Assembly: GCF_964656455.1 (NCBI RefSeq)
Contig: NC_135718.1
Coordinates: forward strand, 150,332,762-150,396,761
Direction: 5' to 3'
Source: Halichoerus grypus
Lineage: Eukaryota; Chordata; Mammalia; Carnivora; Phocidae
DNA length: 64,000 nt
The position numbers and the translations under genes were made by a program. Below, piece by piece: positions 4,763 to 64,000 of the stretch. How positions within the stretch are numbered: the stretch's first letter is position 1; each line of letters begins with the position of its first letter. The notes beneath the pieces are model-generated. The model did not search any database and had not been told where the DNA came from. It saw only the letters and a list, made by a program, of their open reading frames with translations.

Positions 4763-5634
4763 TAGGAAAACCTCAGCAGTTTCCAAGGAGGAAGCCTGTT
4801 AAAGCACTGGAGAGAGGGCTGGAGTAGATCCTGGCTAGGTGTAGGCTAAGGCGCCAATGGGAAAACCTTACACGGGCAATCTCGGTCGTGGGCCTGCGCG
4901 CTGGCGGTGGGGGCTGGGGGAGGTGGAAGGCGTTCCAGGGAACACGCTCGCCACTTTGCCGTGGGACTCAAGGGATGGGTGATGCGATTTCAAGAACCTG
5001 TTGGCTACAAGTCCACCGTCTGTCTCCGGTGTGCCTCCACCCCCTCCTCCTGCTTGGCTGTTGGGTTTTCCCCACCGGCCTCCCGAATCTTCGTGCTCTC
5101 TCTCCTGCACTGCCCGTCGGTTCTGCTTCCTGCACCCGTCCAGATTCGCTTTCCCGACTCCACCTCCCGGGCGCAACCGTGCCGCTGTCTGCTCGCGGTG
5201 GCCGGGAAGCTGGCCCGAGCGGTGGCTGGCCCGAGCGGTGGCTGGCCCGAGGGCGAGGGAAGGGACCAGGGGCTCCAGCAGGTGACCCGACTCAAAGAGG
5301 TAGATCGCTCACCCTGCCCCGACCTCTTCCCCCACTCCCACCCCCCCCACCCCCCCACCCCCGCTTCCCCGCACCGACACCACTAACTAGCACCCCTTGA
5401 AGGAGCAAGGGGTGGCTTGTCAGGGGTGGCGCGGTTTCTCCTGGCCGCAGCAGTGCCGCCGGAGAGTCCAAGCACCTGCGGTGGCCGGACGTGCGGGCGT
5501 CTGTGGGTGGCCCCGAGTGAGGACAGAGGGTGTCGCGGGTGGCCTCTCGGGTTTGGGGCGGAGGAAGAGGGGGAGCCATGCGAGCGCCCAGGGGAGGCGC
5601 CGATGCGCTGCCGTTGGGCGGCCGGCCCGCTGGC

Positions 5635-5863
5635 GAGGCCAAAAGGTTTCGGCTGGCCGAGGCGACAGGGCAAGGCTTGGGCTAGCCCGGGCGCCTGGCC
5701 TTGTCTGGGCACCGAGGCCGTGGAGCTAGCCGCGGGGCAAGGGAGAAGCGAGGCCAAAAGGTTTGGGCTGGCCGAGGCGACAGGGCAAGGCTTGGGCTAC
5801 CCGGGCGCCTGGCCTTGTCTGGGCACCGAGGCCGTGGAGCTAGCCGCGGGGCAAGGGAGAAGC
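5635..5863. repeat. Two-copy 115-bp tandem duplication, unit 1
   Basis: Copy 1 is 5635-5749 and copy 2 is 5750-5863. Each starts GAGGCCAAAAGGTTT and contains GGCTGGCCGAGGCGACAGGG. Copy 2 differs by GGTTTGGG for GGTTTCGG and lacks one base (GGCTACCCGG for GGCTAGCCCGG). The same differences recur in every unit, so the duplication is older than the array. It lies 72 bp from the 3' end of tRNA-Glu. Confidence 0.95.
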
Positions 5864-5878
5864 CAGCCAGCTTCGGCT

Positions 5879-5882
5879 AAAA
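5879..5882 (-). terminator. Distal T4, first candidate Pol III stop for tRNA-Glu (unit 1)
   Basis: AAAA on the plus strand within GGCTAAAAGGGG, 53 nt past the tRNA-Glu 3' end. Use of this site would give an unusually long trailer of about 53-57 nt. Confidence 0.5.
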
Positions 5883-5935
5883 GGGGTGCGGATGCGCTGG
5901 GGAGAGGTCGGTAGGCCGAGAGGAAGAAGAAAGGC

Positions 5936-6007
5936 TTCCCTGACCGGGAATCGAACCCGGGCCGCGGCGGTGAGAGCGCCGAATCCTAACCACTAGACCA
6001 CCAGGGA
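5936..6007 (-). tRNA. tRNA-Glu (anticodon CTC), unit 1
   Basis: A 72-nt intronless gene whose minus strand starts TCCCTGGTGGTCTAGTGG and ends CCCGGTCAGGGAA. It decodes GAG. The acceptor stem TCCCTGG pairs with TCAGGGA (one G-T), the discriminator is A, and the anticodon loop is CTCTCAC. Internal Pol III promoter: A box at 5990-6000 (TGGTCTAGTGG) and B box at 5947-5957 (GGTTCGATTCC). No CCA is encoded, as normal for eukaryotes. To my recollection it matches the common mammalian tRNA-Glu-CTC. Oddity: there is no T4 within 50 nt downstream; the nearest weak T-rich stretch is CTTTCTTCTTCC (minus strand, 5923-5934) and the first T4 is at 5879-5882, 53 nt past the 3' end. Confidence 0.98.
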
Positions 6008-6277
6008 GCGTCGGGCTCTGCGCCTGGCCCGCGCGCCCTGGGCGCAGCGCCTCCACACCACCCCCTCGCCTCCGCTTTGGCTCCAAGGCCCCTGCCTTGC
6101 CACGGCCAGCCGCCCTCCGGCCCTACCAATCCACCCGCCCTGCTGGCAGCACCCTCAAAACGCTGCGCACCTCCTTCCCTCCCTCACACACGCGCTCGGC
6201 CTCGGGCCACGCTCCGGCTCCGGGCTCTCGGCTCCCGGCTCCCATCGGGCCTGGGCACGACGGCCCTGGAGCCCTGC

Positions 6278-6281
6278 AAAA
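6278..6281 (-). terminator. Pol III T4 terminator of tRNA-Gly(TCC), unit 1
   Basis: AAAA on the plus strand in CTGCAAAAGG; spacing of 11 nt to the gene is kept in all units. Confidence 0.85.
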
Positions 6282-6292
6282 GGTTGGCCAGC

Positions 6293-6364
6293 TGCGTTGG
6301 CCGGGAATCGAACCCGGGTCAACTGCTTGGAAGGCAGCTATGCTCACCACTATACCACCAACGC
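6293..6364 (-). tRNA. tRNA-Gly (anticodon TCC), unit 1
   Basis: A 72-nt intronless gene whose minus strand starts GCGTTGGTGGTATAGTGG and ends CCCGGCCAACGCA. It decodes GGA (and GGG by wobble). The acceptor GCGTTGG pairs fully with CCAACGC, the discriminator is A, and the anticodon loop is CTTCCAA. A box at 6347-6357 (TGGTATAGTGG), B box at 6304-6314 (GGTTCGATTCC). Terminator T4 at 6278-6281, 11 nt past the 3' end. It lies 285 bp upstream of tRNA-Glu on the same strand. The 3' flank (6222-6292) is the main unit-typing region; unit 1 has its own form, with CCCGGCTCCC. Confidence 0.98.
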
Positions 6365-6583
6365 TGCACAGCCCGGGCCCGCCCCGAGACGCCGGCGCAG
6401 GGTTCGCAGAGGCGCCTTCACGCCTTCTCGCCGCCGCCTGGGCTGCCTGGCGCAGCCCTGCCCCGACGTGCCGCCAGTCCGCAGCTCTGCGCTGCCGCAC
6501 GCGCCAGCAGCGGCCGCCCCAGCCCCAACCCCAGCCCCAGCCCCGCCAGCCCGACGCCGCCGTGCGGCTCCGCAGGCCCGACC

Positions 6584-6611
6584 GCCCGCCGCCCGCCGCC
6601 CGCCGCCCGCC
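6584..6611. repeat. GCCCGCC heptamer array, 4 copies, unit 1
   Basis: Perfect 7-bp tandem repeat in the Gly(TCC)-Asp spacer, just before TCTGGGGGGCGC. Copy number differs between units. Confidence 0.95.
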
Positions 6612-7094
6612 TCTGGGGGGCGCTCTGGCCGCCGTGCCGCTCCCCCGGCCCTCGGCTGCCGGCCGGGCATTCCCCGGCCCGCGAGACACGCTTCCCTCCG
6701 GCGACCCGCTCGCCCGGGCCCTTCTCCGCGGACTGCCCGGCGAGGCCACATCCCGCACCCACAGGGGACCCGACCCAGCCGCCGCCCACCCGTCCCCCGC
6801 GCCCACCCCCACCCCCACGCCCAGCCAGCACCGGGCAGCGTCGCGTCACCAAGGAGCCCGTTGCGGCCAGTCACTCGTCAGGCGCCGGGGGCACGACAGG
6901 AGGCCCTGGCTGGGCCGTGGCGACCCCGCACGCGCGCGCCCGGGCTCACGAGGAAGGGAAACGGGTGGGGGCGGTCGACGGTGGGCAGGCCGGGCACCCG
7001 TCGTCGCCCCGCGCCTCTCGCCGGACGCGGGAGGGACGAGAAGAAGGGCCCTGGGGCCAAGCGTTTGGACAGAGCGGCGGTGGCGCCGGCCACC

Positions 7095-7099
7095 AAAAA
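7095..7099 (-). terminator. Pol III T5 terminator of tRNA-Asp, unit 1
   Basis: AAAAA on the plus strand in CCACCAAAAAGGG, 11 nt past the gene; same position in every unit. Confidence 0.9.
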
Positions 7100-7110
7100 G
7101 GGCGTCTTGC

Positions 7111-7182
7111 CTCCCCGTCGGGGAATCGAACCCCGGTCTCCCGCGTGACAGGCGGGGATACTCACCACTATACTAACGAGGA
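7111..7182 (-). tRNA. tRNA-Asp (anticodon GTC), unit 1
   Basis: A 72-nt intronless gene whose minus strand starts TCCTCGTTAGTATAGTGG and ends CCCCGACGGGGAG. It decodes GAC and GAT. The anticodon stem is CCCGC/GCGGG with loop CTGTCAC, and the discriminator is G, as in mammalian tRNA-Asp. A box at 7165-7175, B box at 7122-7132 (GGTTCGATTCC). Terminator T5 at 7095-7099, 11 nt past the 3' end, is the strongest in the unit. It is the first of the three minus-strand genes and faces away from tRNA-Leu across the 617-bp spacer. Confidence 0.98.
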
Positions 7183-7611
7183 CGGCGGCGGCGGCCACCC
7201 GGGCGCCCGACCCCTCTCCGCCTGCCCGCCCACGCCTACCCCTGCCCTCGACGCCCCGCCTTACGCAGGCGCCCGCCACGTGCCACACCCGACCCGACCC
7301 CAAACCAACCGCGCCAGCCCGCAGAGCAGCCCTCCCATCCCGACTCGGAGTGGACCCCAGGCCCGGGCCCCGGACCCGGACGGCGCGGAACACTCCGAGT
7401 GCGCCGGCGCCTAGGGCCTGCCGGGCGCCGATCGCGCAGGGAGAAGAGGCCCGAGCGGGCAAGCAAGGATGCGAGCAGGAGGACGGGCGCCCGGGATGGG
7501 CAGGGGCGGCGGAGGGAGGGCGGCGAGGACCTAGTGGGGGTGGGGGGCGGCGGCGGCGAGACAGGCTGGCCCGACGCCGGTCTCTGGGTGCGGGGCCGCC
7601 ATGTGCGAGGA

Positions 7612-7631
7612 GGCGGGGCGGGGCGGGGCGA
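7612..7631. promoter_or_regulatory. GC-box cluster in the divergent Asp/Leu spacer, unit 1
   Basis: Three overlapping GGGGCGGGG-type boxes (Sp1/KLF-like) lie in the 617-bp spacer between minus-strand tRNA-Asp and plus-strand tRNA-Leu, about 170 bp upstream of tRNA-Leu, next to a GCCGCCATG and CGG-repeat stretch. The spacer is CpG-dense and present unchanged in each unit. A promoter-like CpG island is plausible, but no transcript is shown. Confidence 0.45.
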
Positions 7632-7799
7632 GGCGGCGGCGACGGCGGCGGCGGCGGCGGCGCCAGGCGAGTCGGCTGGCGCTGCTCCTGGTCGGCCGGG
7701 GCGCGCGTCCCGTCCCTTGCGCGCCCACACAGCCGCCAGCCGCCACCAGCGTCCGCGCCGGGTCCCAGCCAGGCGAGCGGCGACGCGCCCAGGCCCGCC

Positions 7800-7882
7800 G
7801 TCAGGATGGCCGAGCGGTCTAAGGCGCTGCGTTCAGGTCGCAGTCTCCCCTGGAGGCGTGGGTTCGAATCCCACTCCTGACA
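7800..7882 (+). tRNA. tRNA-Leu (anticodon CAG), unit 1
   Basis: An 83-nt class II tRNA gene starting GTCAGGATGGCCGAGCGG and ending CCCACTCCTGACA, intronless. It decodes CTG. The long variable arm sits around TCTCCCCTGGAGG, the anticodon lies in TTCAGGT, and the acceptor GTCAGGA pairs with TCCTGAC with discriminator A. A box at 7807-7817 (TGGCCGAGCGG), B box at 7861-7871 (GGTTCGAATCC). Terminator T4 at 7891-7894, 8 nt past the 3' end. The upstream spacer is the GC-box region shared with tRNA-Asp. Confidence 0.98.
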
Positions 7883-7890
7883 CGCCCACC

Positions 7891-7894
7891 TTTT
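7891..7894 (+). terminator. Pol III T4 terminator of tRNA-Leu, unit 1
   Basis: TTTT in CCCACCTTTTGGCCC, 8 nt past the gene. Confidence 0.85.
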
Positions 7895-9483
7895 GGCCCG
7901 CCCGACCAGGGCACCGGACCCCGGCGGGCCTGCACCACGCCCTCTCGCAAGCCCGGTCCTGCCTGACCCGCCGCTCCTGCCTTGCACCCTAGCAGAAGGG
8001 GCCCAGTGCCGAGCCCTGACGCCTCGACGCTCCTGGCCACAGGCTTGGCGCACACACGCCCTCCCCCACCAGTTCCCGCGCCTTTCCCGCCCGATCCCAC
8101 CCCCACCCCCGCAGGCCTGGGGAACTTCGCAGCACGTCTCTCCTCACCTGCTTTCCGGGGGCTGCGTTTTCCTTCCTTCCTCGCTCCCGCTCCCGCTCCC
8201 GCCCACTCCCGCGGCCCCCTGCAGACCAGCCGGCTGCGCAAATGCCCAAAGCCCTCCGCATTCCGTTCTCCAGCAGACCGGTGCCTGGTGAAGAGCGCCT
8301 CGCTCTCAGAGCCGTGCACTCCCGCCACCAGGAGCACACCGTCCCACAGAGAGCCCGTCCTTTCCGCCGGCCCCCATTCCCTTCTCTCCACACCCTGCTC
8401 AGGTGGCCCGAGGTGCCCACGAGGATTTGCCACCTTGATGACGCTTTACCCTGGCCACACCTGCCTGCCTCCCTCCCGGGACACAGGCTGCCCGGCCACC
8501 TGCTCGCCGGCCCACGACAGGGCCCTCCCTTCAGTGGGCCTGGCCCGGGAGTCCAGCCCGGGAAGGTGGCTCCCGTGAGCGCTGAGCCGAAGGAAGCCCT
8601 GAATCCCCAGGCCACCCACCTGGGCGCCCGAGCGCATCTCCGCGCCGGCAGCCGCTGCGCGGCCGGGACCCGAGGACCCCAGCGCGCTCCCTCACCGCGC
8701 TGTCGGCCAGCTAGCCAGCAGCCGCTCGGCCAGAGCGCTCCCGCGAGCCGAGATCGCGCTCCGGCCTCACAACCACCGCCCCCCCCCCCCGCGCCCCGCC
8801 GAGCTGGCCCCCTAGGGAGCGCTGCGCGCCCGAGCTCAGACACGTCGCTTCGCTCTCCTGGCCTGAGCGGCTCCTCGGCGGCGCCGGCGGCGCTACGGGG
8901 CCTCCATCTCCTACACACAACACACGCGCCCGCGGACACCCACACGCCCACACCCACACCCACACACCCCACCCCGCGACAGCCCACCCCACGGCACCGC
9001 ACGTGCGCACACAACCGGAGCTCCGGTCCCCAGCCCCGCCCGCCCTCGCACACTCTGCCCCGGCCACAAAGCCCTCGGCCAAAGGGGCTCTCTGGGTGGC
9101 GGCTGAGAGGAGCCGCTGAAGGCAGCGGCAGGGCTCAGCCGCGCCTGCCACGGGATCCCCCGCGCTGGGTGGGATTCGGGCGCTGGCCAGCCTGGGTCCG
9201 GCTCCCGGCTGCCCCTGGCGACCCCGGCAGGGCAGCGTCTCGCCGCGGCCCTGGACCGAGGACAAAGCGCCGCATGAGCCTAGTCGGCCACCGTGCGTCC
9301 GCGCCGCGCTCGGCCCGCGTGCGCCGCTCCCTAGGGCTCCGGACGTGCCTGGAGCGTCTGGTCCACACCGCCCGTCCGCCTCCTGCTCAAACGAAGCCGA
9401 TGCTCCGAACCGGCCCGGACCCGTGTCTGGCCGCCGCTGGCGAGCGCCGCTGGGGAAGCCGTCTGGGGAGCGGCGCCATCGGT

Positions 9484-9554
9484 GCATGGGTGGTTCAGTG
9501 GTAGAATTCTCGCCTGCCACGCGGGAGGCCCGGGTTCGATTCCCGGCCCATGCA
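9484..9554 (+). tRNA. tRNA-Gly (anticodon GCC), unit 1
   Basis: A 71-nt intronless gene starting GCATGGGTGGTTCAGTGG and ending CCCGGCCCATGCA. It decodes GGC and GGT. The acceptor GCATGGG pairs with CCCATGC, the anticodon loop is CTGCCAC, and the discriminator is A. A box at 9491-9501 (TGGTTCAGTGG), B box at 9533-9543 (GGTTCGATTCC). Terminator T4 at 9568-9571, 13 nt past the 3' end. It is isolated: 1601 bp from tRNA-Leu and several kb from the next tRNA-Glu. Mammalian tRNA-Gly-GCC is a major source of 5' tRNA halves. Confidence 0.98.
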
Positions 9555-9567
9555 GCGCGCCGTCCCC

Positions 9568-9571
9568 TTTT
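9568..9571 (+). terminator. Pol III T4 terminator of tRNA-Gly(GCC), unit 1
   Basis: TTTT in CGTCCCCTTTTGGCC, 13 nt past the gene. Confidence 0.85.
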
Positions 9572-10340
9572 GGCCGGCCCTGCAGCCCCAACGCGCGCGC
9601 GCCCGCGCCCCCGGCTTCCTCTCGCCCACGCTCAAGGCGCCTGGCCTGAACTAGCTCCGCTCCGGACCCAGCCGGAGCCCGCCCCTGCCCTGCCGCCCGT
9701 TCCCTTCCTCTCGGTCCTTCTCGCCCAGGGGACCAACTCCACCCAGCGCCCGAGGCCCCTGGCCCGCCCACACGCCTCCCTTGCCCCTTTTCTCTTCAGG
9801 ACCCTGAGCACCCCGCTTCGCTCACCCGCTTCCCTTCCAGCAATGCTTCCCCGCACCACCACACACCCGCACCGCGCCGCGCCGCACCAGAGCCCACGGG
9901 GCCGCGCCCCACCTCCGCGCCTTTCATCACCGTTCCTCCCTCCCTGTCTCACTCTACCCACACTGCCAGAATCCTCGTCTCTTTGCACAACCAGGGGCAA
10001 CCAAGTTGCCACCCCTAGCCCTGATCCGTCCTATTCTCCTCCAGGGACCCTCACAAACTCACTGGGGTGCACCAGGAAGACCAGATGCATGGCACCACAT
10101 CCTCCCGACGCGCGCCCTATAGTCTCTTGAGGCGCCGCTTGGCCGCAGTAGCCTCCAAACTCCGCCGCTCCTGCAACGCTAGGACCCCCGCCAACACCAG
10201 GTCCACCACCGCCCGCGCCGGCACTAGCACCAGCAGCACCAATCTCCCCATCCGCCGCCGCCGCCGCCGCCACCGCCACAAGTCCACCGTCACCACACCG
10301 CCTCGGGCACCATCGCCCACAACAGTGAAGTCCTCCAACA

Positions 10341-10945
10341 TCCAGCCCACCACCAAGTCCACCACCACCACCACCGCCATCACCAGCAGGACCAAGTCCG
10401 CGACCAGCGCACCAGCAATGACATCATTGCCAACGGTACCCAAGTCCTCCACAATCACCACCACCGCCTCGACCTCCACCACCACCACCACCACCACCAC
10501 CACCAACTCCAGCACCACCACCTCCACCATCACCACCACCACCACCGCCATCACCAGCAGGACCAAGTCCAGCACCAGCGCACCAGCATGGGCATCATTG
10601 CCAACGGTACCCAAGTCCTCCACGATCACCACCACCACCTCTACCACCACCACCACCACCACCACGACCACCACCACCGCCACCTTCACCATCACCACCG
10701 CCGCCGCCGCCGCCGCCATCACCAGCAGGACCAAGGCCACCACCAGCTCACCAGCATGGGCATCATTGCCAACGGTACCGAAGTCCTCCACGATCACCAC
10801 CACCACCACCACCACCACCAGCTCCACCACCACCAGCCCCACCACCGACTCCACCGTCACCACACCGACTCGGGCACCATCGCCAACACTACTGGAGTCC
10901 GTCACCACCACCGCCACCACCGGGACCGTGCACACCATCACCACA
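10341..10945. repeat. ACC/CAC triplet block with ~170-bp higher-order repeat, unit 1
   Basis: Mostly ACC triplets broken by conserved islands such as CATTGCCAACGGTACC and CACCAGCAGGACCAAG. The islands recur at 10381, 10552 and 10720, giving a secondary period of 171 and 168 bp. The block is open in several frames on both strands: plus-strand frames read as runs of Thr or His, the minus-strand frame as runs of Val. One plus frame spans 361 codons (10067-11152). With no splice or promoter evidence and such low complexity I do not call it a gene. Unit 1 and unit 5 carry two more GCC triplets (near 10702) than the other units. Confidence 0.9.
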
Positions 10946-11938
10946 GCAGCCCGCGCGCCGGCACCAACAGCACGAGGTCCACCCCCAGCAGCAGGAGCAG
11001 CAGCAGCAGCAAGTCGTCCTCCGCCAGCAGCACAAGCACCAGCACAGCCCGCACCCCCACCCCCACCCCCACCAGCCCCTCCTGCCCCAACGTCCCCACA
11101 CGGGTCCCCTGCCTGCACGCCCCCTCCTTTCCGAGTCCTCAGTGGTCAATGATCCTGTGTGGCATCTGTCCCTTTGGCCTCTCTGAATCTCAACCCCAGG
11201 ACGACCCCTGACGCGTCACTGGCTGTCCCGATGACAGGTGATGGAAGCCTCGGGGGCGGTGGAATCCCTCGCCCCGTTGGGACGGCTCCTAGACCCGGTC
11301 CCGCCCTCTCTCTGTGTCTCCCTTGCCTGCCTGCCTGCCGGCCTGCTTCCCACCCACGCCCCCCACACCCCACCCCTTGGCCTGACCACCTTGCAGCACA
11401 GCACAGCGGTCTCCCCCCGCGCACCTCCTCCGCCACGGTCCTGTCCCGCCACGGGGGCCTCCAGCTTTCTTGCACCGGGGCCCACTCCCCAGCACTTGCC
11501 GCGTGCAGCTCCTGCCAGCCTCCAGGCTGGACCCCTCCCACCCACCCCCCACCCCTTGTCCCCCACCCCCATCCCTCACATTCTCGGCTGGCAGTCCCGG
11601 CCTCCCACAGGCTCCTCAGGCACACTCGTGCTCTCTCCCCTCCCCTACCTCAGATCTCACCCTCCCGCACAGGTGCTCACGTACGTGCCTGGCATGGCGC
11701 CGGGGAAGGAGCCCTTCCCCCCCCCCCCCACCGAAGCCTCTGCAGACACCCTGCCCGACTGTCCGGCCACACTCTGGACCGGTCCCGCAAGCCCCACACC
11801 TCCCCGCCCCCGGCACCCCACCCACACACCCGGGCTGCCCCCGGCCCTCCCCTCCTTCTGGGATCCTTTTGGCTCTGTGCCCTAACCCCCGTGGCAGGCC
11901 ACCCACGTGAGTAAACACCTTCATCCCGCGGTATCCCC

Positions 11939-12117
11939 CACCACACACACTCCACACACACACACACACACACCACACACGCTCACACACACCCCCCACA
12001 TGCTCACACCCACACCCCCCCACATGCTCACACCCACACACACCCAACTTGCTCACACACGCCCACCCACACACACACACCACACACACACCCAGACACA
12101 CACACATACACACACAG
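11939..12117. repeat. CA-rich block (ACACACC/CACATGCTCA), unit 1
   Basis: About 180 bp of imperfect (CA)n with interspersed CCC and a repeated CACATGCTCACACCCACAC-type element. It lies about 280 bp before the next unit junction. Alternating purine-pyrimidine runs could favour Z-DNA. No gene is seen in the 12118-12398 remainder. Confidence 0.93.
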
Positions 12118-13225
12118 AAGCAATGGCACTGAGGGAACTTCCCGTGGTGACGGTAAGCGCCCGGCCGCCCACAGCGGCTCCTTTCCGCCGCTGGTACGAC
12201 CTTGTCCCAACCCAGCCAGTGTGGTGCTGCGGCAGCTTTGGCCGGTGCACGGGCTGTCCGCTTGGGCTCCTAAAGGAGACAATCTCTGAACAGACAGCAG
12301 ACCCTTGGCGGACAGGGGTGTGCAAGTGTTGGTGGGAAGGAGACTGTGGTCTGCGATTTAGCTGGAGGAGCACCCGGACAAGACGACGGGCACAGGGGTG
12401 GAGAGAGGGCTGGAGTAGATCCTGGCTAGGTGTAGGCTAAGGCGCCAATGGGAAAACCTTACACGGGCAATCTCGGTCGTGGGCCTGCGCGCTGGCGGTG
12501 GGGGCTGGGGGAGGTGGAAGGCGTTCCAGGGAACACGCTCGCCACTTTGCCGTGGGACTCAAGGGATGGGTGATGCGATTTCAAGAACCTGTTGGCTACA
12601 AGTCCACCGTCTGTCTCCGGTGTGCCTCCACCCCCTCCTCCTGCTTGGCTGTTGGGTTTTCCCCACCGGCCTCCCGAATCTTCGTGCTCTCTCTCCTGCA
12701 CTGCCCGTCGGTTCTGCTTCCTGCACCCGTCCAGATTCGCTTTCCCGACTCCACCTCCCGGGCGCAACCGTGCCGCTGTCTGCTCGCGGTGGCCGGGAAG
12801 CTGGCCCGAGCGGTGGCTGGCCCGAGCGGTGGCTGGCCCGAGGGCGAGGGAAGGGACCAGGGGCTCCAGCAGGTGACCCGACTCAAAGAGGTAGATCGCT
12901 CACCCTGCCCCGACCTCTTCCCCCACTCCCACCCCCCCCACCCCCCCACCCCCGCTTCCCCGCACCGACACCACTAACTAGCACCCCTTGAAGGAGCAAG
13001 GGGTGGCTTGTCAGGGGTGGCGCGGTTTCTCCTGGCCGCAGCAGTGCCGCCGGAGAGTCCAAGCACCTGCGGTGGCCGGACGTGCGGGCGTCTGTGGGTG
13101 GCCCCGAGTGAGGACAGAGGGTGTCGCGGGTGGCCTCTCGGGTTTGGGGCGGAGGAAGAGGGGGAGCCATGCGAGCGCCCAGGGGAGGCGCCGATGCGCT
13201 GCCGTTGGGCGGCCGGCCCGCTGGC

Positions 13226-13454
13226 GAGGCCAAAAGGTTTCGGCTGGCCGAGGCGACAGGGCAAGGCTTGGGCTAGCCCGGGCGCCTGGCCTTGTCTGGG
13301 CACCGAGGCCGTGGAGCTAGCCGCGGGGCAAGGGAGAAGCGAGGCCAAAAGGTTTGGGCTGGCCGAGGCGACAGGGCAAGGCTTGGGCTACCCGGGCGCC
13401 TGGCCTTGTCTGGGCACCGAGGCCGTGGAGCTAGCCGCGGGGCAAGGGAGAAGC
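13226..13454. repeat. 115-bp duplication, unit 2
   Basis: Same two-copy structure and same copy-specific differences as in unit 1. Confidence 0.94.
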
Positions 13455-13526
13455 CAGCCAGCTTCGGCTAAAAGGGGTGCGGATGCGCTGGGGAGAGGTC
13501 GGTAGGCCGAGAGGAAGAAGAAAGGC

Positions 13527-13598
13527 TTCCCTGACCGGGAATCGAACCCGGGCCGCGGCGGTGAGAGCGCCGAATCCTAACCACTAGACCACCAGGGA
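13527..13598 (-). tRNA. tRNA-Glu (CTC), unit 2
   Basis: Same 72-nt sequence as the unit 1 gene, intact A and B boxes. Again no proximal T4. The 5' flank has the T variant (GTCGGGCTCTG). Confidence 0.98.
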
Positions 13599-13869
13599 GC
13601 GTCGGGCTCTGCGCCTGGCCCGCGCGCCCTGGGCGCAGCGCCTCCACACCACCCCCTCGCCTCCGCTTTGGCTCCAAGGCCCCTGCCTTGCCACGGCCAG
13701 CCGCCCTCCGGCCCTACCAATCCACCCGCCCTGCTGGCAGCACCCTCAAAACGCTGCGCACCTCCTTCCCTCCCTCACACACGCGCTCGGCCTCGGGCCA
13801 CGCTCCGGCTCCGGGCTCCCATCGGGCCTGGGCACGACGGCCCTGGAGCCGTGCAAAAGGTTGGCCAGC

Positions 13870-13941
13870 TGCGTTGGCCGGGAATCGAACCCGGGTCAAC
13901 TGCTTGGAAGGCAGCTATGCTCACCACTATACCACCAACGC
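13870..13941 (-). tRNA. tRNA-Gly (TCC), unit 2
   Basis: Same gene sequence as unit 1. Terminator T4 at 13855-13858. The 3' flank is the short type A form, with GAGCCGTG beside the terminator. Confidence 0.98.
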
Positions 13942-14159
13942 TGCACAGCCCGGGCCGCCCCGAGACGCCGGCGCAGGGTTCGCAGAGGCGCCTTCACGCC
14001 TTCTCGCCGCCGCCTGGGCTGCCTGGCGCAGCCCTGCCCCGACGTGCCGCCAGTCCGCAGCTCTGCGCTGCCGCACGCGCCAGCAGCGGCCGCCCCAGCC
14101 CCAACCCCAGCCCCAGCCCCGCCAGCCCGACGCCGCCGTGCGGCTCCGCAGGCCCGACC

Positions 14160-14201
14160 GCCCGCCGCCCGCCGCCCGCCGCCCGCCGCCCGCCGCCCGC
14201 C
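14160..14201. repeat. GCCCGCC array, 6 copies, unit 2
   Basis: Counted directly: 42 bp. Confidence 0.95.
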
Positions 14202-53421: not shown

Positions 53422-55024
53422 CGCCCACCTTTTGGCCCGCCCGACCAGGGCACCGGACCCCGGCGGGCCTGCACCACGCCCTCTCGCAAGCCCGGTCCTG
53501 CCTGACCCGCCGCTCCTGCCTTGCACCCTAGCAGAAGGGGCCCAGTGCCGAGCCCTGACGCCTCGACGCTCCTGGCCACAGGCTTGGCGCACACACGCCC
53601 TCCCCCACCAGTTCCCGCGCCTTTCCCGCCCGATCCCACCCCCACCCCCGCAGGCCTGGGGAACTTCGCAGCACGTCTCTCCTCACCTGCTTTCCGGGGG
53701 CTGCGTTTTCCTTCCTTCCTCGCTCCCGCTCCCGCTCCCGCTCCCGCCCACTCCCGCGGCCCCCTGCAGACCAGCCGGCTGCGCAAATGCCCAAAGCCCT
53801 CCGCATTCCGTTCTCCAGCAGACCGGTGCCTGGTGAAGAGCGCCTCGCTCTCAGAGCCGTGCACTCCCGCCACCAGGAGCACACCGTCCCACAGAGAGCC
53901 CGTCCTTTCCGCCGGCCCCCATTCCCTTCTCTCCACACCCTGCTCAGGTGGCCCGAGGTGCCCACGAGGATTTGCCACCTTGATGACGCTTTACCCTGGC
54001 CACACCTGCCTGCCTCCCTCCCGGGACACAGGCTGCCCGGCCACCTGCTCGCCGGCCCACGACAGGGCCCTCCCTTCAGTGGGCCTGGCCCGGGAGTCCA
54101 GCCCGGGAAGGTGGCTCCCGTGAGCGCTGAGCCGAAGGAAGCCCTGAATCCCCAGGCCACCCACCTGGGCGCCCGAGCGCATCTCCGCGCCGGCAGCCGC
54201 TGCCCGGCCGGGACCCGAGGACCCCAGCGCGCTCCCTCACCGCGCTGTCGGCCAGCTAGCCAGCAGCCGCTCGGCCAGAGCGCTCCCGCGAGCCGAGATC
54301 GCGCTCCGGCCTCACAACCACCGCCCCCCCCCCCCCCGCGCCCCGCCGAGCTGGCCCCCTAGGGAGCGCTGCGCGCCCGAGCTCAGACACGTCGCTTCGC
54401 TCTCCTGGCCTGAGCGGCTCCTCGGCGGCGCCGGCGGCGCTACGGGGCCTCCATCTCCTACACACAACACACGCGCCCGCGGACACCCACACACCCACAC
54501 CCACACACCCCACCCCGCGACAGCCCACCCCACGGCACCGCACGTGCGCACACAACCGGAGCTCCGGTCCCCAGCCCCGCCCGCCCTCGCACACTCTGCC
54601 CCGGCCACAAAGCCCTCGGCCAAAGGGGCTCTCTGGGTGGCGGCTGAGAGGAGCCGCTGAAGGCAGCGGCAGGGCTCAGCCGCGCCTGCCACGGGATCCC
54701 CCGCGCTGGGTGGGATTCGGGCGCTGGCCAGCCTGGGTCCGGCTCCCGGCTGCCCCTGGCGACCCCGGCAGGGCAGCGTCTCGCCGCGGCCCTGGACCGA
54801 GGACAAAGCGCCGCATGAGCCTAGTCGGCCACCGTGCGTCCGCGCCGCGCTCGGCCCGCGTGCGCCGCTCCCTAGGGCTCCGGACGTGCCTGGAGCGTCT
54901 GGTCCACACCGCCCGTCCGCCTCCTGCTCAAACGAAGCCGATGCTCCGAACCGGCCCGGACCCGTGTCTGGCCGCCGCTGGCGAGCGCCGCTGGGGAAGC
55001 CGTCTGGGGAGCGGCGCCATCGGT

Positions 55025-55095
55025 GCATGGGTGGTTCAGTGGTAGAATTCTCGCCTGCCACGCGGGAGGCCCGGGTTCGATTCCCGGCCCATGCA
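55025..55095 (+). tRNA. tRNA-Gly (GCC), unit 7
   Basis: Gene body unchanged. Terminator T4 at 55109-55112. Confidence 0.98.
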
Positions 55096-55881
55096 GCGCG
55101 CCGTCCCCTTTTGGCCGGCCCTGCAGCCCCAACGCGCGCGCGCCCGCGCCCCCGGCTTCCTCTCGCCCACGCTCAAGGCGCCTGGCCTGAACTAGCTCCG
55201 CTCCGGACCCAGCCGGAGCCCGCCCCTGCCCTGCCGCCCGTTCCCTTCCTCTCGGTCCTTCTCGCCCAGGGGACCAACTCCACCCAGCGCCCGAGGCCCC
55301 TGGCCCGCCCACACGCCTCCCTTGCCCCTTTTCTCTTCAGGACCCTGAGCACCCCGCTTCGCTCACCCGCTTCCCTTCCAGCAATGCTTCCCCGCACCAC
55401 CACACACCCGCACCGCGCCGCGCCGCACCAGAGCCCACGGGGCCGCGCCCCACCTCCGCGCCTTTCATCACCGTTCCTCCCTCCCTGTCTCACTCTACCC
55501 ACACTGCCAGAATCCTCGTCTCTTTGCACAACCAGGGGCAACCAAGTTGCCACCCCTAGCCCTGATCCGTCCTATTCTCCTCCAGGGACCCTCACAAACT
55601 CACTGGGGTGCACCAGGAAGACCAGATGCATGGCACCACATCCTCCCGACGCGCGCCCTATAGTCTCTTGAGGCGCCGCTTGGCCGCAGTAGCCTCCAAA
55701 CTCCGCCGCTCCTGCAACGCTAGGACCCCCGCCAACACCAGGTCCACCACCGCCCGCGCCGGCACTAGCACCAGCAGCACCAATCTCCCCATCCGCCGCC
55801 GCCGCCGCCGCCACCGCCACAAGTCCACCGTCACCACACCGCCTCGGGCACCATCGCCCACAACAGTGAAGTCCTCCAACA

Positions 55882-56480
55882 TCCAGCCCACCACCAAGTC
55901 CACCACCACCACCACCGCCATCACCAGCAGGACCAAGTCCGCGACCAGCGCACCAGCAATGACATCATTGCCAACGGTACCCAAGTCCTCCACAATCACC
56001 ACCACCGCCTCGACCTCCACCACCACCACCACCACCACCACCACCAACTCCAGCACCACCACCTCCACCATCACCACCACCACCACCGCCATCACCAGCA
56101 GGACCAAGTCCAGCACCAGCGCACCAGCATGGGCATCATTGCCAACGGTACCCAAGTCCTCCACGATCACCACCACCACCTCTACCACCACCACCACCAC
56201 CACCACGACCACCACCACCGCCACCTTCACCATCACCACCGCCGCCGCCGCCATCACCAGCAGGACCAAGGCCACCACCAGCTCACCAGCATGGGCATCA
56301 TTGCCAACGGTACCGAAGTCCTCCACGATCACCACCACCACCACCACCACCACCAGCTCCACCACCACCAGCCCCACCACCGACTCCACCGTCACCACAC
56401 CGACTCGGGCACCATCGCCAACACTACTGGAGTCCGTCACCACCACCGCCACCACCGGGACCGTGCACACCATCACCACA
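55882..56480. repeat. ACC triplet block, unit 7
   Basis: Four-GCC form. Confidence 0.9.
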
Positions 56481-57473
56481 GCAGCCCGCGCGCCGGCACC
56501 AACAGCACGAGGTCCACCCCCAGCAGCAGGAGCAGCAGCAGCAGCAAGTCGTCCTCCGCCAGCAGCACAAGCACCAGCACAGCCCGCACCCCCACCCCCA
56601 CCCCCACCAGCCCCTCCTGCCCCAACGTCCCCACACGGGTCCCCTGCCTGCACGCCCCCTCCTTTCCGAGTCCTCAGTGGTCAATGATCCTGTGTGGCAT
56701 CTGTCCCTTTGGCCTCTCTGAATCTCAACCCCAGGACGACCCCTGACGCGTCACTGGCTGTCCCGATGACAGGTGATGGAAGCCTCGGGGGCGGTGGAAT
56801 CCCTCGCCCCGTTGGGACGGCTCCTAGACCCGGTCCCGCCCTCTCTCTGTGTCTCCCTTGCCTGCCTGCCTGCCGGCCTGCTTCCCACCCACGCCCCCCA
56901 CACCCCACCCCTTGGCCTGACCACCTTGCAGCACAGCACAGCGGTCTCCCCCCGCGCACCTCCTCCGCCACGGTCCTGTCCCGCCACGGGGGCCTCCAGC
57001 TTTCTTGCACCGGGGCCCACTCCCCAGCACTTGCCGCGTGCAGCTCCTGCCAGCCTCCAGGCTGGACCCCTCCCACCCACCCCCCACCCCTTGTCCCCCA
57101 CCCCCATCCCTCACATTCTCGGCTGGCAGTCCCGGCCTCCCACAGGCTCCTCAGGCACACTCGTGCTCTCTCCCCTCCCCTACCTCAGATCTCACCCTCC
57201 CGCACAGGTGCTCACGTACGTGCCTGGCATGGCGCCGGGGAAGGAGCCCTTCCCCCCCCCCCCCACCGAAGCCTCTGCAGACACCCTGCCCGACTGTCCG
57301 GCCACACTCTGGACCGGTCCCGCAAGCCCCACACCTCCCCGCCCCCGGCACCCCACCCACACACCCGGGCTGCCCCCGGCCCTCCCCTCCTTCTGGGATC
57401 CTTTTGGCTCTGTGCCCTAACCCCCGTGGCAGGCCACCCACGTGAGTAAACACCTTCATCCCGCGGTATCCCC

Positions 57474-57652
57474 CACCACACACACTCCACACACACACAC
57501 ACACACACCACACACGCTCACACACACCCCCCACATGCTCACACCCACACCCCCCCACATGCTCACACCCACACACACCCAACTTGCTCACACACGCCCA
57601 CCCACACACACACACCACACACACACCCAGACACACACACATACACACACAG
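57474..57652. repeat. CA-rich block, unit 7
   Basis: Unit 7 copy, same length. Confidence 0.92.
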
Positions 57653-58760
57653 AAGCAATGGCACTGAGGGAACTTCCCGTGGTGACGGTAAGCGCCCGGC
57701 CGCCCACAGCGGCTCCTTTCCGCCGCTGGTACGACCTTGTCCCAACCCAGCCAGTGTGGTGCTGCGGCAGCTTTGGCCGGTGCACGGGCTGTCCGCTTGG
57801 GCTCCTAAAGGAGACAATCTCTGAACAGACAGCAGACCCTTGGCGGACAGGGGTGTGCAAGTGTTGGTGGGAAGGAGACTGTGGTCTGCGATTTAGCTGG
57901 AGGAGCACCCGGACAAGACGACGGGCACAGGGGTGGAGAGAGGGCTGGAGTAGATCCTGGCTAGGTGTAGGCTAAGGCGCCAATGGGAAAACCTTACACG
58001 GGCAATCTCGGTCGTGGGCCTGCGCGCTGGCGGTGGGGGCTGGGGGAGGTGGAAGGCATTCCAGGGAACACGCTCGCCACTTTGCCGTGGGACTCAAGGG
58101 ATGGGTGATGCGATTTCAAGAACCTGTTGGCTACAAGTCCACCGTCTGTCTCCGGTGTGCCTCCACCCCCTCCTCCTGCTTGGCTGTTGGGTTTTCCCCA
58201 CCGGCCTCCCGAATCTTCGTGCTCTCTCTCCTGCACTGCCCGTCGGTTCTGCTTCCTGCACCCGTCCAGATTCGCTTTCCCGACTCCACCTCCCGGGCGC
58301 AACCGTGCCGCTGTCTGCTCGCGGTGGCCGGGAAGCTGGCCCGAGCGGTGGCTGGCCCGAGCGGTGGCTGGCCCGAGGGCGAGGGAAGGGACCAGGGGCT
58401 CCAGCAGGTGACCCGACTCAAAGAGGTAGATCGCTCACCCTGCCCCGACCTCTTCCCCCACTCCCACCCCCCCCACCCCCCCACCCCCGCTTCCCCGCAC
58501 CGACACCACTAACTAGCACCCCTTGAAGGAGCAAGGGGTGGCTTGTCAGGGGTGGCGCGGTTTCTCCTGGCCGCAGCAGTGCCGCCGGAGAGTCCAAGCA
58601 CCTGCGGTGGCCGGACGTGCGGGCGTCTGTGGGTGGCCCCGAGTGAGGACAGAGGGTGTCGCGGGTGGCCTCTCGGGTTTGGGGCGGAGGAAGAGGGGGA
58701 GCCATGCGAGCGCCCAGGGGAGGCGCCGATGCGCTGCCGTTGGGCGGCCGGCCCGCTGGC

Positions 58761-58989
58761 GAGGCCAAAAGGTTTCGGCTGGCCGAGGCGACAGGGCAAG
58801 GCTTGGGCTAGCCCGGGCGCCTGGCCTTGTCTGGGCACCGAGGCCGTGGAGCTAGCCGCGGGGCAAGGGAGAAGCGAGGCCAAAAGGTTTGGGCTGGCCG
58901 AGGCGACAGGGCAAGGCTTGGGCTACCCGGGCGCCTGGCCTTGTCTGGGCACCGAGGCCGTGGAGCTAGCCGCGGGGCAAGGAAGAAGC
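58761..58989. repeat. 115-bp duplication, unit 8
   Basis: Unit 8 copy; the second repeat carries the private G to A at 58983. Confidence 0.94.
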
Positions 58990-59061
58990 CAGCCAGCTTC
59001 GGCTAAAAGGGGTGCGGATGCGCTGGGGAGAGGTCGGTAGGCCGAGAGGAAGAAGAAAGGC

Positions 59062-59133
59062 TTCCCTGACCGGGAATCGAACCCGGGCCGCGGCGGTGAG
59101 AGCGCCGAATCCTAACCACTAGACCACCAGGGA
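59062..59133 (-). tRNA. tRNA-Glu (CTC), unit 8
   Basis: Gene body unchanged; no proximal T4; C variant in the 5' flank. Confidence 0.98.
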
Positions 59134-59418
59134 GCGTCGGGCCCTGCGCCTGGCCCGCGCGCCCTGGGCGCAGCGCCTCCACACCACCCCCTCGCCTCCG
59201 CTTTGGCTCCAAGGCCCCTGCCTTGCCACGGCCAGCCGCCCTCCGGCCCTACCAATCCACCCGCCCTGCTGGCAGCACCCTCAAAACGCTGCGCACCTCC
59301 TTCCCTCCCTCACACACGCGCTCGGCCTCGGGCCACGCTCCGGCTCCGGGCTCTCGGCTCCGGGCTCCCATCGGGCCTGGGCACGACGGCCCTGGAGCCC
59401 TGCAAAAGGTTGGCCAGC

Positions 59419-59490
59419 TGCGTTGGCCGGGAATCGAACCCGGGTCAACTGCTTGGAAGGCAGCTATGCTCACCACTATACCACCAACGC
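59419..59490 (-). tRNA. tRNA-Gly (TCC), unit 8
   Basis: Gene body unchanged. Terminator T4 at 59404-59407. Long type B 3' flank. Confidence 0.98.
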
Positions 59491-59709
59491 TGCACAGCCC
59501 GGGCCCGCCCCGAGACGCCGGCGCAGGGTTCGCAGAGGCGCCTTCACGCCTTCTCGCCGCCGCCTGGGCTGCCTGGCGCAGCCCTGCCCCGACGTGCCGC
59601 CAGTCCGCAGCTCTGCGCTGCCGCACGCGCCAGCAGCGGCCGCCCCAGCCCCAACCCCAGCCCCAGCCCCGCCAGCCCGACGCCGCCGTGCGGCTCCGCA
59701 GGCCCGACC

Positions 59710-59737
59710 GCCCGCCGCCCGCCGCCCGCCGCCCGCC
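59710..59737. repeat. GCCCGCC array, 4 copies, unit 8
   Basis: Counted directly: 28 bp. Confidence 0.95.
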
Positions 59738-60236
59738 TCTGGGGGGCGCTCTGGCCGCCGTGCCGCTCCCCCGGCCCTCGGCTGCCGGCCGGGCATTCCC
59801 CGGCCCGCGAGACACGCTTCCCTCCGGCGACCCGCTCGCCCGGGCCCTTCTCCGCGGACTGCCCGGCGAGGCCACATCCCGCACCCACAGGGGACCCGAC
59901 CCAGCCGCCGCCCACCCGTCCCCCGCGCCCACCCCCACCCCCACGCCCAGCCAGCACCGGGCAGCGTCGCGTCACCAAGGAGCCCGTTGCGGCCAGTCAC
60001 TCGTCAGGCGCCGGGGGCACGACAGGAGGCCCTGGCTGGGCCGTGGCGACCCCGCACGCGCGCGCCCGGGCTCACGAGGAAGGGAAACGGGTGGGGGCGG
60101 TCGACGGTGGGCAGGCCGGGCACCCGTCGTCGCCCCGCGCCTCTCGCCGGACGCGGGAGGGACGAGAAGAAGGGCCCTGGGGCCAAGCGTTTGGACAGAG
60201 CGGCGGTGGCGCCGGCCACCAAAAAGGGCGTCTTGC

Positions 60237-60308
60237 CTCCCCGTCGGGGAATCGAACCCCGGTCTCCCGCGTGACAGGCGGGGATACTCACCACTATACT
60301 AACGAGGA
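60237..60308 (-). tRNA. tRNA-Asp (GTC), unit 8
   Basis: Gene body unchanged. Terminator T5 at 60221-60225. Confidence 0.98.
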
Positions 60309-60925
60309 CGGCGGCGGCGGCCACCCGGGCGCCCGACCCCTCTCCGCCTGCCCGCCCACGCCTACCCCTGCCCTCGACGCCCCGCCTTACGCAGGCGCCC
60401 GCCACGTGCCACACCCGACCCGACCCCAAACCAACCGCGCCAGCCCGCAGAGCAGCCCTCCCATCCCGACTCGGAGTGGACCCCAGGCCCGGGCCCCGGA
60501 CCCGGACGGCGCGGAACACTCCGAGTGCGCCGGCGCCTAGGGCCTGCCGGGCGCCGATCGCGCAGGGAGAAGAGGCCCGAGCGGGCAAGCAAGGATGCGA
60601 GCAGGAGGACGGGCGCCCGGGATGGGCAGGGGCGGCGGAGGGAGGGCGGCGAGGACCTAGTGGGGGTGGGGGGCGGCGGCGGCGAGACAGGCTGGCCCGA
60701 CGCCGGTCTCTGGGTGCGGGGCCGCCATGTGCGAGGAGGCGGGGCGGGGCGGGGCGAGGCGGCGGCGACGGCGGCGGCGGCGGCGGCGCCAGGCGAGTCG
60801 GCTGGCGCTGCTCCTGGTCGGCCGGGGCGCGCGTCCCGTCCCTTGCGCGCCCACACAGCCGCCAGCCGCCACCAGCGTCCGCGCCGGGTCCCAGCCAGGC
60901 GAGCGGCGACGCGCCCAGGCCCGCC

Positions 60926-61008
60926 GTCAGGATGGCCGAGCGGTCTAAGGCGCTGCGTTCAGGTCGCAGTCTCCCCTGGAGGCGTGGGTTCGAATCCCAC
61001 TCCTGACA
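60926..61008 (+). tRNA. tRNA-Leu (CAG), unit 8
   Basis: Gene body unchanged. Terminator T4 at 61017-61020. Confidence 0.98.
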
Positions 61009-62610
61009 CGCCCACCTTTTGGCCCGCCCGACCAGGGCACCGGACCCCGGCGGGCCTGCACCACGCCCTCTCGCAAGCCCGGTCCTGCCTGACCCGCCGC
61101 TCCTGCCTTGCACCCTAGCAGAAGGGGCCCAGTGCCGAGCCCTGACGCCTCGACGCTCCTGGCCACAGGCTTGGCGCACACACGCCCTCCCCCACCAGTT
61201 CCCGCGCCTTTCCCGCCCGATCCCACCCCCACCCCCGCAGGCCTGGGGAACTTCGCAGCACGTCTCTCCTCACCTGCTTTCCGGGGGCTGCGTTTTCCTT
61301 CCTTCCTCGCTCCCGCTCCCGCTCCCGCTCCCGCCCACTCCCGCGGCCCCCTGCAGACCAGCCGGCTGCGCAAATGCCCAAAGCCCTCCGCATTCCGTTC
61401 TCCAGCAGACCGGTGCCTGGTGAAGAGCGCCTCGCTCTCAGAGCCGTGCACTCCCGCCACCAGGAGCACACCGTCCCACAGAGAGCCCGTCCTTTCCGCC
61501 GGCCCCCATTCCCTTCTCTCCACACCCTGCTCAGGTGGCCCGAGGTGCCCACGAGGATTTGCCACCTTGATGACGCTTTACCCTGGCCACACCTGCCTGC
61601 CTCCCTCCCGGGACACAGGCTGCCCGGCCACCTGCTCGCCGGCCCACGACAGGGCCCTCCCTTCAGTGGGCCTGGCCCGGGAGTCCAGCCCGGGAAGGTG
61701 GCTCCCGTGAGCGCTGAGCCGAAGGAAGCCCTGAATCCCCAGGCCACCCACCTGGGCGCCCGAGCGCATCTCCGCGCCGGCAGCCGCTGCCCGGCCGGGA
61801 CCCGAGGACCCCAGCGCGCTCCCTCACCGCGCTGTCGGCCAGCTAGCCAGCAGCCGCTCGGCCAGAGCGCTCCCGCGAGCCGAGATCGCGCTCCGGCCTC
61901 ACAACCACCGCCCCCCCCCCCCCGCGCCCCGCCGAGCTGGCCCCCTAGGGAGCGCTGCGCGCCCGAGCTCAGACACGTCGCTTCGCTCTCCTGGCCTGAG
62001 CGGCTCCTCGGCGGCGCCGGCGGCGCTACGGGGCCTCCATCTCCTACACACAACACACGCGCCCGCGGACACCCACACACCCACACCCACACACCCCACC
62101 CCGCGACAGCCCACCCCACGGCACCGCACGTGCGCACACAACCGGAGCTCCGGTCCCCAGCCCCGCCCGCCCTCGCACACTCTGCCCCGGCCACAAAGCC
62201 CTCGGCCAAAGGGGCTCTCTGGGTGGCGGCTGAGAGGAGCCGCTGAAGGCAGCGGCAGGGCTCAGCCGCGCCTGCCACGGGATCCCCCGCGCTGGGTGGG
62301 ATTCGGGCGCTGGCCAGCCTGGGTCCGGCTCCCGGCTGCCCCTGGCGACCCCGGCAGGGCAGCGTCTCGCCGCGGCCCTGGACCGAGGACAAAGCGCCGC
62401 ATGAGCCTAGTCGGCCACCGTGCGTCCGCGCCGCGCTCGGCCCGCGTGCGCCGCTCCCTAGGGCTCCGGACGTGCCTGGAGCGTCTGGTCCACACCGCCC
62501 GTCCGCCTCCTGCTCAAACGAAGCCGATGCTCCGAACCGGCCCGGACCCGTGTCTGGCCGCCGCTGGCGAGCGCCGCTGGGGAAGCCGTCTGGGGAGCGG
62601 CGCCATCGGT

Positions 62611-62681
62611 GCATGGGTGGTTCAGTGGTAGAATTCTCGCCTGCCACGCGGGAGGCCCGGGTTCGATTCCCGGCCCATGCA
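62611..62681 (+). tRNA. tRNA-Gly (GCC), unit 8
   Basis: Gene body unchanged. Terminator T4 at 62695-62698. Last complete gene in the window. Confidence 0.98.
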
Positions 62682-63467
62682 GCGCGCCGTCCCCTTTTGG
62701 CCGGCCCTGCAGCCCCAACGCGCGCGCGCCCGCGCCCCCGGCTTCCTCTCGCCCACGCTCAAGGCGCCTGGCCTGAACTAGCTCCGCTCCGGACCCAGCC
62801 GGAGCCCGCCCCTGCCCTGCCGCCCGTTCCCTTCCTCTCGGTCCTTCTCGCCCAGGGGACCAACTCCACCCAGCGCCCGAGGCCCCTGGCCCGCCCACAC
62901 GCCTCCCTTGCCCCTTTTCTCTTCAGGACCCTGAGCACCCCGCTTCGCTCACCCGCTTCCCTTCCAGCAATGCTTCCCCGCACCACCACACACCCGCACC
63001 GCGCCGCGCCGCACCAGAGCCCACGGGGCCGCGCCCCACCTCCGCGCCTTTCATCACCGTTCCTCCCTCCCTGTCTCACTCTACCCACACTGCCAGAATC
63101 CTCGTCTCTTTGCACAACCAGGGGCAACCAAGTTGCCACCCCTAGCCCTGATCCGTCCTATTCTCCTCCAGGGACCCTCACAAACTCACTGGGGTGCACC
63201 AGGAAGACCAGATGCATGGCACCACATCCTCCCGACGCGCGCCCTATAGTCTCTTGAGGCGCCGCTTGGCCGCAGTAGCCTCCAAACTCCGCCGCTCCTG
63301 CAACGCTAGGACCCCCGCCAACACCAGGTCCACCACCGCCCGCGCCGGCACTAGCACCAGCAGCACCAATCTCCCCATCCGCCGCCGCCGCCGCCGCCAC
63401 CGCCACAAGTCCACCGTCACCACACCGCCTCGGGCACCATCGCCCACAACAGTGAAGTCCTCCAACA

Positions 63468-64000
63468 TCCAGCCCACCACCAAGTCCACCACCACCACCA
63501 CCGCCATCACCAGCAGGACCAAGTCCGCGACCAGCGCACCAGCAATGACATCATTGCCAACGGTACCCAAGTCCTCCACAATCACCACCACCGCCTCGAC
63601 CTCCACCACCACCACCACCACCACCACCACCAACTCCAGCACCACCACCTCCACCATCACCACCACCACCACCGCCATCACCAGCAGGACCAAGTCCAGC
63701 ACCAGCGCACCAGCATGGGCATCATTGCCAACGGTACCCAAGTCCTCCACGATCACCACCACCACCTCTACCACCACCACCACCACCACCACGACCACCA
63801 CCACCGCCACCTTCACCATCACCACCGCCGCCGCCGCCATCACCAGCAGGACCAAGGCCACCACCAGCTCACCAGCATGGGCATCATTGCCAACGGTACC
63901 GAAGTCCTCCACGATCACCACCACCACCACCACCACCACCAGCTCCACCACCACCAGCCCCACCACCGACTCCACCGTCACCACACCGACTCGGGCACCA
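63468..64000. repeat. ACC triplet block, unit 8, cut by window end
   Basis: Four-GCC form as far as seen; the window ends inside the block. Confidence 0.9.

What the first reader, a model, noticed from the sequence alone, without database searches (positions are those of the whole stretch)
4808..64000. Macrosatellite made of five-tRNA-gene units (40 tRNA genes in 59 kb)
Seven full and one partial 7.58-7.60 kb head-to-tail units each carry Glu(CTC), Gly(TCC), Asp(GTC), Leu(CAG) and Gly(GCC) genes in one fixed layout. Such long tandem arrays of Pol III genes with large non-coding spacers are rare in mammals. All five isoacceptors must change dosage together when the array expands or contracts. 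The array runs off the right edge, so total copy number is unknown.
Basis: seen in the sequence. Interest (0 to 1): 0.85.

Follow-up and report, generated by a model that had tools for sequence, protein, structure and literature searches.

The report
Carnivore copy of known tRNA array
This looks like the carnivore version of a tandem tRNA-gene array already described next to the SDHC gene in humans, other primates and mice; it is real, and its one new twist is that in this genome assembly the array changes direction near one end.

Summary
From window 4808 to the right edge lie seven full head-to-tail units (7,579-7,603 bp) and one cut unit (6,067 bp), with 40 tRNA genes in one fixed layout.

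It is not a new kind of locus. The same five tRNA genes, on the same two strands, in a GC-rich unit of about 7.4 kb form the human 1q23.3 tDNA VNTR, also reported in primates and mouse (PMC4041453: 9-43 units per human allele, CTCF-bound, boundary candidate).

Orthology rests on position: SDHC, MPZ and NR1I3 exons on one side, an HSP70 fragment on the other. A relative of the human 24-bp CTCF element is in 14 of 14 unit copies. Flanking SINEs suggest a caniform carnivoran (recognised from memory).

Added here: in the held assembly the array spans 99.7 kb, 12 forward unit starts and then about 1.3 inverted units at the SDHC end. The main block has mouse-like, the inverted end human-like orientation (one strand recalled). 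No reads were available, so the inversion could be an assembly effect.

Verdict: orthologue of a known macrosatellite, with one structural variation worth a long-read check.

The parts
4808..64000 (+). tDNA macrosatellite: units starting at 4808, 12399, 19986, 27589, 35177, 42769, 50348 and 57934 (last one cut by the window edge)
4808..12398 (+). first unit, 7591 bp, GC 0.709, 709 CpG, CpG observed/expected 0.78
5936..6007 (-). tRNA-Glu(CTC), first of 8 identical copies (others start at 13527, 21114, 28717, 36305, 43897, 51476, 59062); no run of four T in the 40 bp downstream
6293..6364 (-). tRNA-Gly(TCC), first of 8 identical copies (13870, 21471, 29074, 36662, 44240, 51819, 59419)
7111..7182 (-). 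tRNA-Asp(GTC), first of 8 identical copies (14701, 22303, 29892, 37480, 45064, 52650, 60237)
7800..7883 (+). tRNA-Leu(CAG), first of 8 identical copies (15390, 22992, 30581, 38169, 45753, 53339, 60926)
9483..9556 (+). tRNA-Gly(GCC), first of 8 identical copies (17075, 24677, 32265, 39853, 47438, 55024, 62610); holds the only EcoRI site of each unit
6604..6626 (-). relative of the human 24-bp CTCF element; the same 23 bp starts at 14194, 21796, 29385, 36973, 44557, 52143 and 59730
   Evidence: gapped alignment score 35 against at most 30 in 300 shuffled units; positions
5633..5863 (.). two-copy 114-bp repeat beside the Glu gene, present in each of the 8 units
10347..10855 (.). minisatellite of about three 162-171 bp copies rich in CCA triplets, present in each of the 8 units
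1..4807 (.). left flank, GC 0.41, SINE-rich; no tRNA gene; no similarity to the unit at E 1e-3

Best explanation
The array is the carnivoran orthologue of the human 1q23.3 / mouse 1qH3 tDNA tandem repeat. Each unit is a set of five Pol III genes plus one CTCF-type element in a CpG-rich spacer. Most likely the array supplies tRNA genes in bulk and also serves as a chromatin boundary, through CTCF and Pol III factors, between the HSP70 (FCGR) side and the SDHC-MPZ-NR1I3 side. Unequal exchange and gene conversion keep the units alike and let copy number change. Shown here: the units, intact genes with Pol III promoter boxes, the CTCF-type element, the gene neighbourhood, and the extent of the array in one assembly. 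Inferred: transcription, CTCF binding, boundary activity, exchange between units, and copy-number variation in this species. I put about 0.97 on orthology and about 0.55 on a boundary role in this species; the figure below is for the array being this orthologue and working as a Pol III gene array.
For: 40 intact tRNA genes, each with A-box and B-box matches. Same five genes and the same strand split (Leu and Gly against Glu, Gly and Asp) and a similar unit length as in human (7.38 kb) and mouse (7.6 kb) (PMC4041453). Neighbourhood: five colinear SDHC pieces and four MPZ pieces by tblastn, NR1I3 exon by PDB sequence search (E 2e-28; next gene PXR 1e-12), HSP70 fragment on the other side. CTCF-type element: 0 of 300 shuffled units reach its score; 1 of 1000 shuffled motifs does; found in 14 of 14 units. 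Mosaic sharing of variants among units.
Against: CTCF element: without a gap the human 24-mer has 8 mismatches there and other places fit better (6); the mouse 24-mer is not significant (46 of 300 shuffles reach its score); a general CTCF consensus scan finds 7 sites in a unit against 6.4 in shuffles. The Pfam search for SDHC (PF01127) did not report the SDHC next to the array, only places on C1 and at C7:32.3 Mb. Pfam found no family in the NR1I3 exon. The Glu gene lacks a T4 run within 40 bp downstream. No expression, binding or population data exist here.
Confidence: 0.85

Rival explanations
1. Passive by-product: tRNA genes multiplied by unequal exchange, with no boundary role; the CTCF-type element persists only because exchange keeps all units alike.
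For: Exchange alone makes the whole unit, spacer included, uniform inside this array. PMC4041453 itself leaves a function beyond tRNA supply open (discussion). General CTCF consensus sites are not in excess.
Against: Exchange within a species does not explain likeness of the element between human and this genome. PMC4041453 reports that, apart from tRNA genes, only this element is conserved between human and mouse. I had no human unit to measure how far the spacer here has diverged.
Confidence: 0.3
2. The array is real, but the direction change at L012 near 735 and the exact length are assembly errors.
For: Arrays of nearly identical 7.6-kb units are hard to assemble; no reads could be inspected. 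The join shows no long shared sequence and a few mismatches on both sides.
Against: Each outer edge starts at unit position 1 and points inward, so if both edges are right, at least one direction change must lie between them wherever it is. The units at the change differ most from the rest (F12p 3.8-4.9 and R01p 2.3-4.2 substitutions per kb), which is not expected of a mere mis-joined copy.
Confidence: 0.35
3. The whole array is an assembly artefact made from one or few units.
For: Units F01-F09 differ by only 0-0.79 substitutions per kb, and one pair (F03, F04) by none.
Against: The 7 full window units are 7 different sequences with shared, mosaic variants; later units differ by up to 4.9 per kb; human alleles of 9-43 units are known by Southern blot (PMC4041453).
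Confidence: 0.03

Closest known systems
Human 1q23.3 tDNA VNTR (Darrow and Chadwick 2014, PMC4041453)
   Same: Five tRNA genes with the same strand split, GC-rich CpG-dense unit of similar length, SDHC neighbourhood, a 24-bp CTCF element
   Different: Here the unit is 7.59 kb against 7.38 kb, GC 0.71 against 0.642 for the human region, 709 CpG against 588; window units are more alike than the 98% reported for human; main block in the opposite direction relative to SDHC (human SDHC strand recalled); about 1.3 inverted units at one end
Mouse 1qH3 tDNA repeat (PMC4041453)
   Same: Same five genes, 7.6-kb unit, array inverted relative to flanking genes when compared with human
   Different: Mouse has at least three units and 356 CpG per unit; no inverted end units are mentioned in the text I read; the mouse 24-mer is not detectable here beyond chance
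DXZ4 macrosatellite (as described in PMC4041453)
   Same: GC-rich tandem array with a conserved CTCF site and a proposed architectural role
   Different: X-linked and not made of tRNA genes

Membership tests
1q23.3-type tDNA macrosatellite | Five tRNA genes per unit: Leu and Gly on one strand; Glu, Gly and Asp on the other | tested here: met
   8 of 8 window units
1q23.3-type tDNA macrosatellite | GC-rich head-to-tail unit of about 7.3-7.6 kb | tested here: met
   7,579-7,603 bp, GC 0.709
1q23.3-type tDNA macrosatellite | Syntenic place beside SDHC | tested here: met
   Nearest SDHC piece about 55 kb from the array, then MPZ and NR1I3; HSP70 fragment on the other side. C1orf192 and FCGR genes were not searched for.
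1q23.3-type tDNA macrosatellite | 24-bp CTCF element | tested here: met
   Human element aligns over 23 bp with one inserted base and one substitution; 0 of 300 shuffled units and 1 of 1000 shuffled motifs reach its score; mouse element not significant
1q23.3-type tDNA macrosatellite | CTCF binding, bivalent chromatin in embryonic stem cells | not testable with these tools
   no functional data here
1q23.3-type tDNA macrosatellite | Copy number varies between individuals | not testable with these tools
   one assembly only
1q23.3-type tDNA macrosatellite | LTR/ERV elements flanking the array | tested here: inconclusive
   gag and reverse-transcriptase frames in L029, left of the window; no repeat library was at hand to classify the sequence that touches either edge
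1q23.3-type tDNA macrosatellite | All units in one direction | tested here: not met
   In this assembly 12 forward unit starts, then 2 reverse anchors (about 1.3 units). The paper's text draws units as right-facing arrows but does not make a single direction a criterion, so this is a difference, not an exclusion.

The most novel reading that the evidence does not exclude
One array holds both orientations: a 12-start block in the mouse-like direction and about 1.3 units in the human-like direction at the SDHC end, with both outer edges at almost the same unit position. If real, it is an intermediate showing how this array can flip relative to its neighbours in different mammals without moving a flanking gene: an inversion inside the repeat, then growth of one orientation at the cost of the other.
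Probability: 0.45. Interest if true: 0.5.

Novelty: new member of a known kind. Interest (0 to 1): 0.33.

Why it matters
If the SINE-based assignment to Carnivora is right, the five-gene repeat is now seen in a third mammalian order besides primates and rodents, at the same place. That supports an origin before these lineages split and selection for gene set, unit size and a CTCF element (inference). The direction change offers a test: does boundary behaviour depend on the direction of the CTCF elements or only on their presence?

Tried and rejected
Whole-array artefact: unlikely, see rivals. A five-gene locus unrelated to 1q23.3: rejected by the neighbourhood. SDHC by Pfam PF01127: reported only C1:50.7 Mb and C7:32.3 Mb; the locus beside the array was seen only by tblastn with a recalled protein. 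General CTCF consensus: no excess. Ungapped search for the 24-mers: no close match. Whether the spacer occurs elsewhere in the genome: not completed. NDUFS2 (PF00346): not answered, not asked again. Literature on a carnivore version: searches (101 papers, 20 listed; none; 4 papers) listed no paper whose title or shown abstract describes one; PMC13197249, a 60-mammal copy-number survey with 10 Carnivora, showed none in the passages seen (12 of 13 places). One search listed only an unrelated review. PMC10791582 and PMC2888827 were seen in a listing only. Why the two edges share a unit position is unexplained.
Full report
What is there. The window holds 40 tRNA genes, 40 of 40 confirmed by Rfam at 56.9-66.6 bits, in seven full units and one cut unit that begin at 4808. 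Order within a unit: Glu(CTC)-, Gly(TCC)-, Asp(GTC)-, Leu(CAG)+, Gly(GCC)+. Each gene is letter-identical in 8 of 8 copies and matches A-box and B-box patterns (patterns recalled). Four of five have a run of at least four T within 40 bp downstream; Glu does not. The tRNA genes make up 4.9% of the first unit. That unit has GC 0.709 and CpG observed/expected 0.78, against 0.41 and 0.28 in the left flank.

How alike the units are. The eight window units show 7 isolated single-base columns and 8 short indel sites, combined in mosaic fashion: for example, a 14-bp segment at 6225 is missing from units 2, 6 and 7, while the base at 6017 groups units 1, 2, 6 and 7. This fits unequal exchange and conversion (inference). 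The 7 full units are all different. Human units are reported as 98% identical (PMC4041453).

Beyond the window. The window is C7:150332762-150396761 of a 2.40-Gb assembly of 170 contigs. I fetched 200 kb to the right and 20 kb to the left. The array goes on for 30.7 kb in the same direction, turns round at L012 near 735, and runs about 9.8 kb in the opposite direction to L013:526-532. In all it covers 99,725 bp with 12 forward and 2 reverse unit anchors. Gly(TCC) genes number 8 in the window and 6 outside it. The other genes outside the window were not counted, because parts of the fetched loci read N.

The edges. The left edge starts at unit position 1. The right edge ends at unit position 1, plus six further matching bases, pointing the other way. 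The flanks beyond the two edges are different sequences. I have no firm explanation for the shared position. Among F01-F09 pairs differ by 0-0.79 substitutions per kb. The later units differ more from these: F11 0.69-1.24, R02 1.25-1.53, F10 1.80-2.35, R01p 2.3-4.2, F12p 3.9-4.2; the rise is not steady, and the left-edge unit F01 is not unusual. R02 is closest to F11 (0.69 per kb), which suggests exchange across the direction change (inference from few differences: 10 shared and 42 single-unit substitution columns in all).

Neighbours. To the right, five SDHC pieces in order on the minus strand (L021, L020, L018; nearest about 55 kb from the array) and four MPZ pieces on the plus strand (L022), by tblastn with recalled human proteins. 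Then an NR1I3 exon in L027 (best PDB match NR1I3, E 2e-28), in which Pfam saw no family. To the left, about 16 kb from the array, an HSP70 C-terminal fragment in L030; I call it HSPA6-like because HSPA6 lies here in human (recalled), not because a search separated it from other HSP70s. Between it and the window lie retroviral gag and reverse-transcriptase frames in L029. An RPL32-like frame lies in L015. The Pfam search of the genome for SDHC's family did not list the SDHC beside the array.

Organism. Flank repeats recur through the right-hand loci, and weak tRNA-Lys hits turn up in L016, L019 and L020 (ARAGORN; Rfam 30.3-32.9 bits). From memory I recognise these as Can SINEs of the caniform type. 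PMC9599045 (passages only) says Can SINEs occur in Caniformia and Feliformia and compares them with a lysine tRNA gene. No call names the species.

Comparison with the known locus. PMC4041453 (abstract, introduction, methods, results and discussion read; figures and supplements not seen) describes the human 1q23.3 array: 7.3-kb unit, the same five tRNA genes, 9-43 units per allele, two CTCF peaks, one on a 24-bp element shared with mouse; variable alleles in other primates; [quoted passage not shown] The window agrees in genes, strands, unit size, GC richness and neighbourhood.

The CTCF element. The human 24-mer aligns at 6604-6626 over 23 bp with one inserted base and one substitution (score 35; best of 300 dinucleotide-shuffled units 30). 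One of 1000 shuffled motifs does as well. The 23 bp are exact in 14 of 14 units: 8 in the window, 4 forward and 2 inverted outside it. Against it: without a gap the site has 8 mismatches and other places have 6, the mouse 24-mer is unremarkable (46 of 300 shuffles), and a general CTCF consensus gives 7 sites against 6.4 expected. Binding is untested.

Orientation. SDHC is on the minus strand here while Leu and Gly(GCC) of the main block are on the plus strand, so the two are opposed. In human, Leu and Gly are on the sense strand and SDHC on the plus strand (recalled), so they agree. [quoted passage not shown] Hence the main block is mouse-like and the inverted end human-like, given one recalled strand and a correct assembly.

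Dosage. Copies of the five genes rise and fall together by construction, but Gly(GCC) genes also lie on contigs C15 and C2, so supply need not follow array size. The other four were not searched for elsewhere.

Verdict. Added here: an orthologue in a probable carnivoran, its extent in one assembly, a kept CTCF-type element, and a direction change that deserves long-read confirmation. The searches made for a carnivore version and the broader ones listed no paper, by title or shown abstract, describing one; this covers only the open-licence library and the lists shown.

Noticed in passing
window 185-285: Y RNA match on the minus strand (46.5 bits, gathering score 38), in the left flank, perhaps a retrocopy.
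   Followed up: no
L029:7598-9383: Retroviral gag p24 and reverse-transcriptase reading frames on the minus strand just left of the window: an endogenous retrovirus near the array edge, as reported for human and mouse.
   Followed up: partly
L014:2275-3220: Two tRNA-Glu(TTC) genes on opposite strands in the right flank, 92-94% like the array's Glu gene over the aligned part.
   Followed up: no
window 5896-5935: The Glu gene has no run of four T in the 40 bp downstream, unlike the other four genes.
   Followed up: no
L030:9290-9907: Frame opposite the HSP70 fragment's strand that matches Pfam NAD-GH (E 2.4e-10); probably the antisense of HSP70 coding sequence (recalled as a known source of such matches).
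   Followed up: no
L015:9014-9553: RPL32-like reading frame (Pfam E 1.6e-54), probably a processed copy.
   Followed up: no
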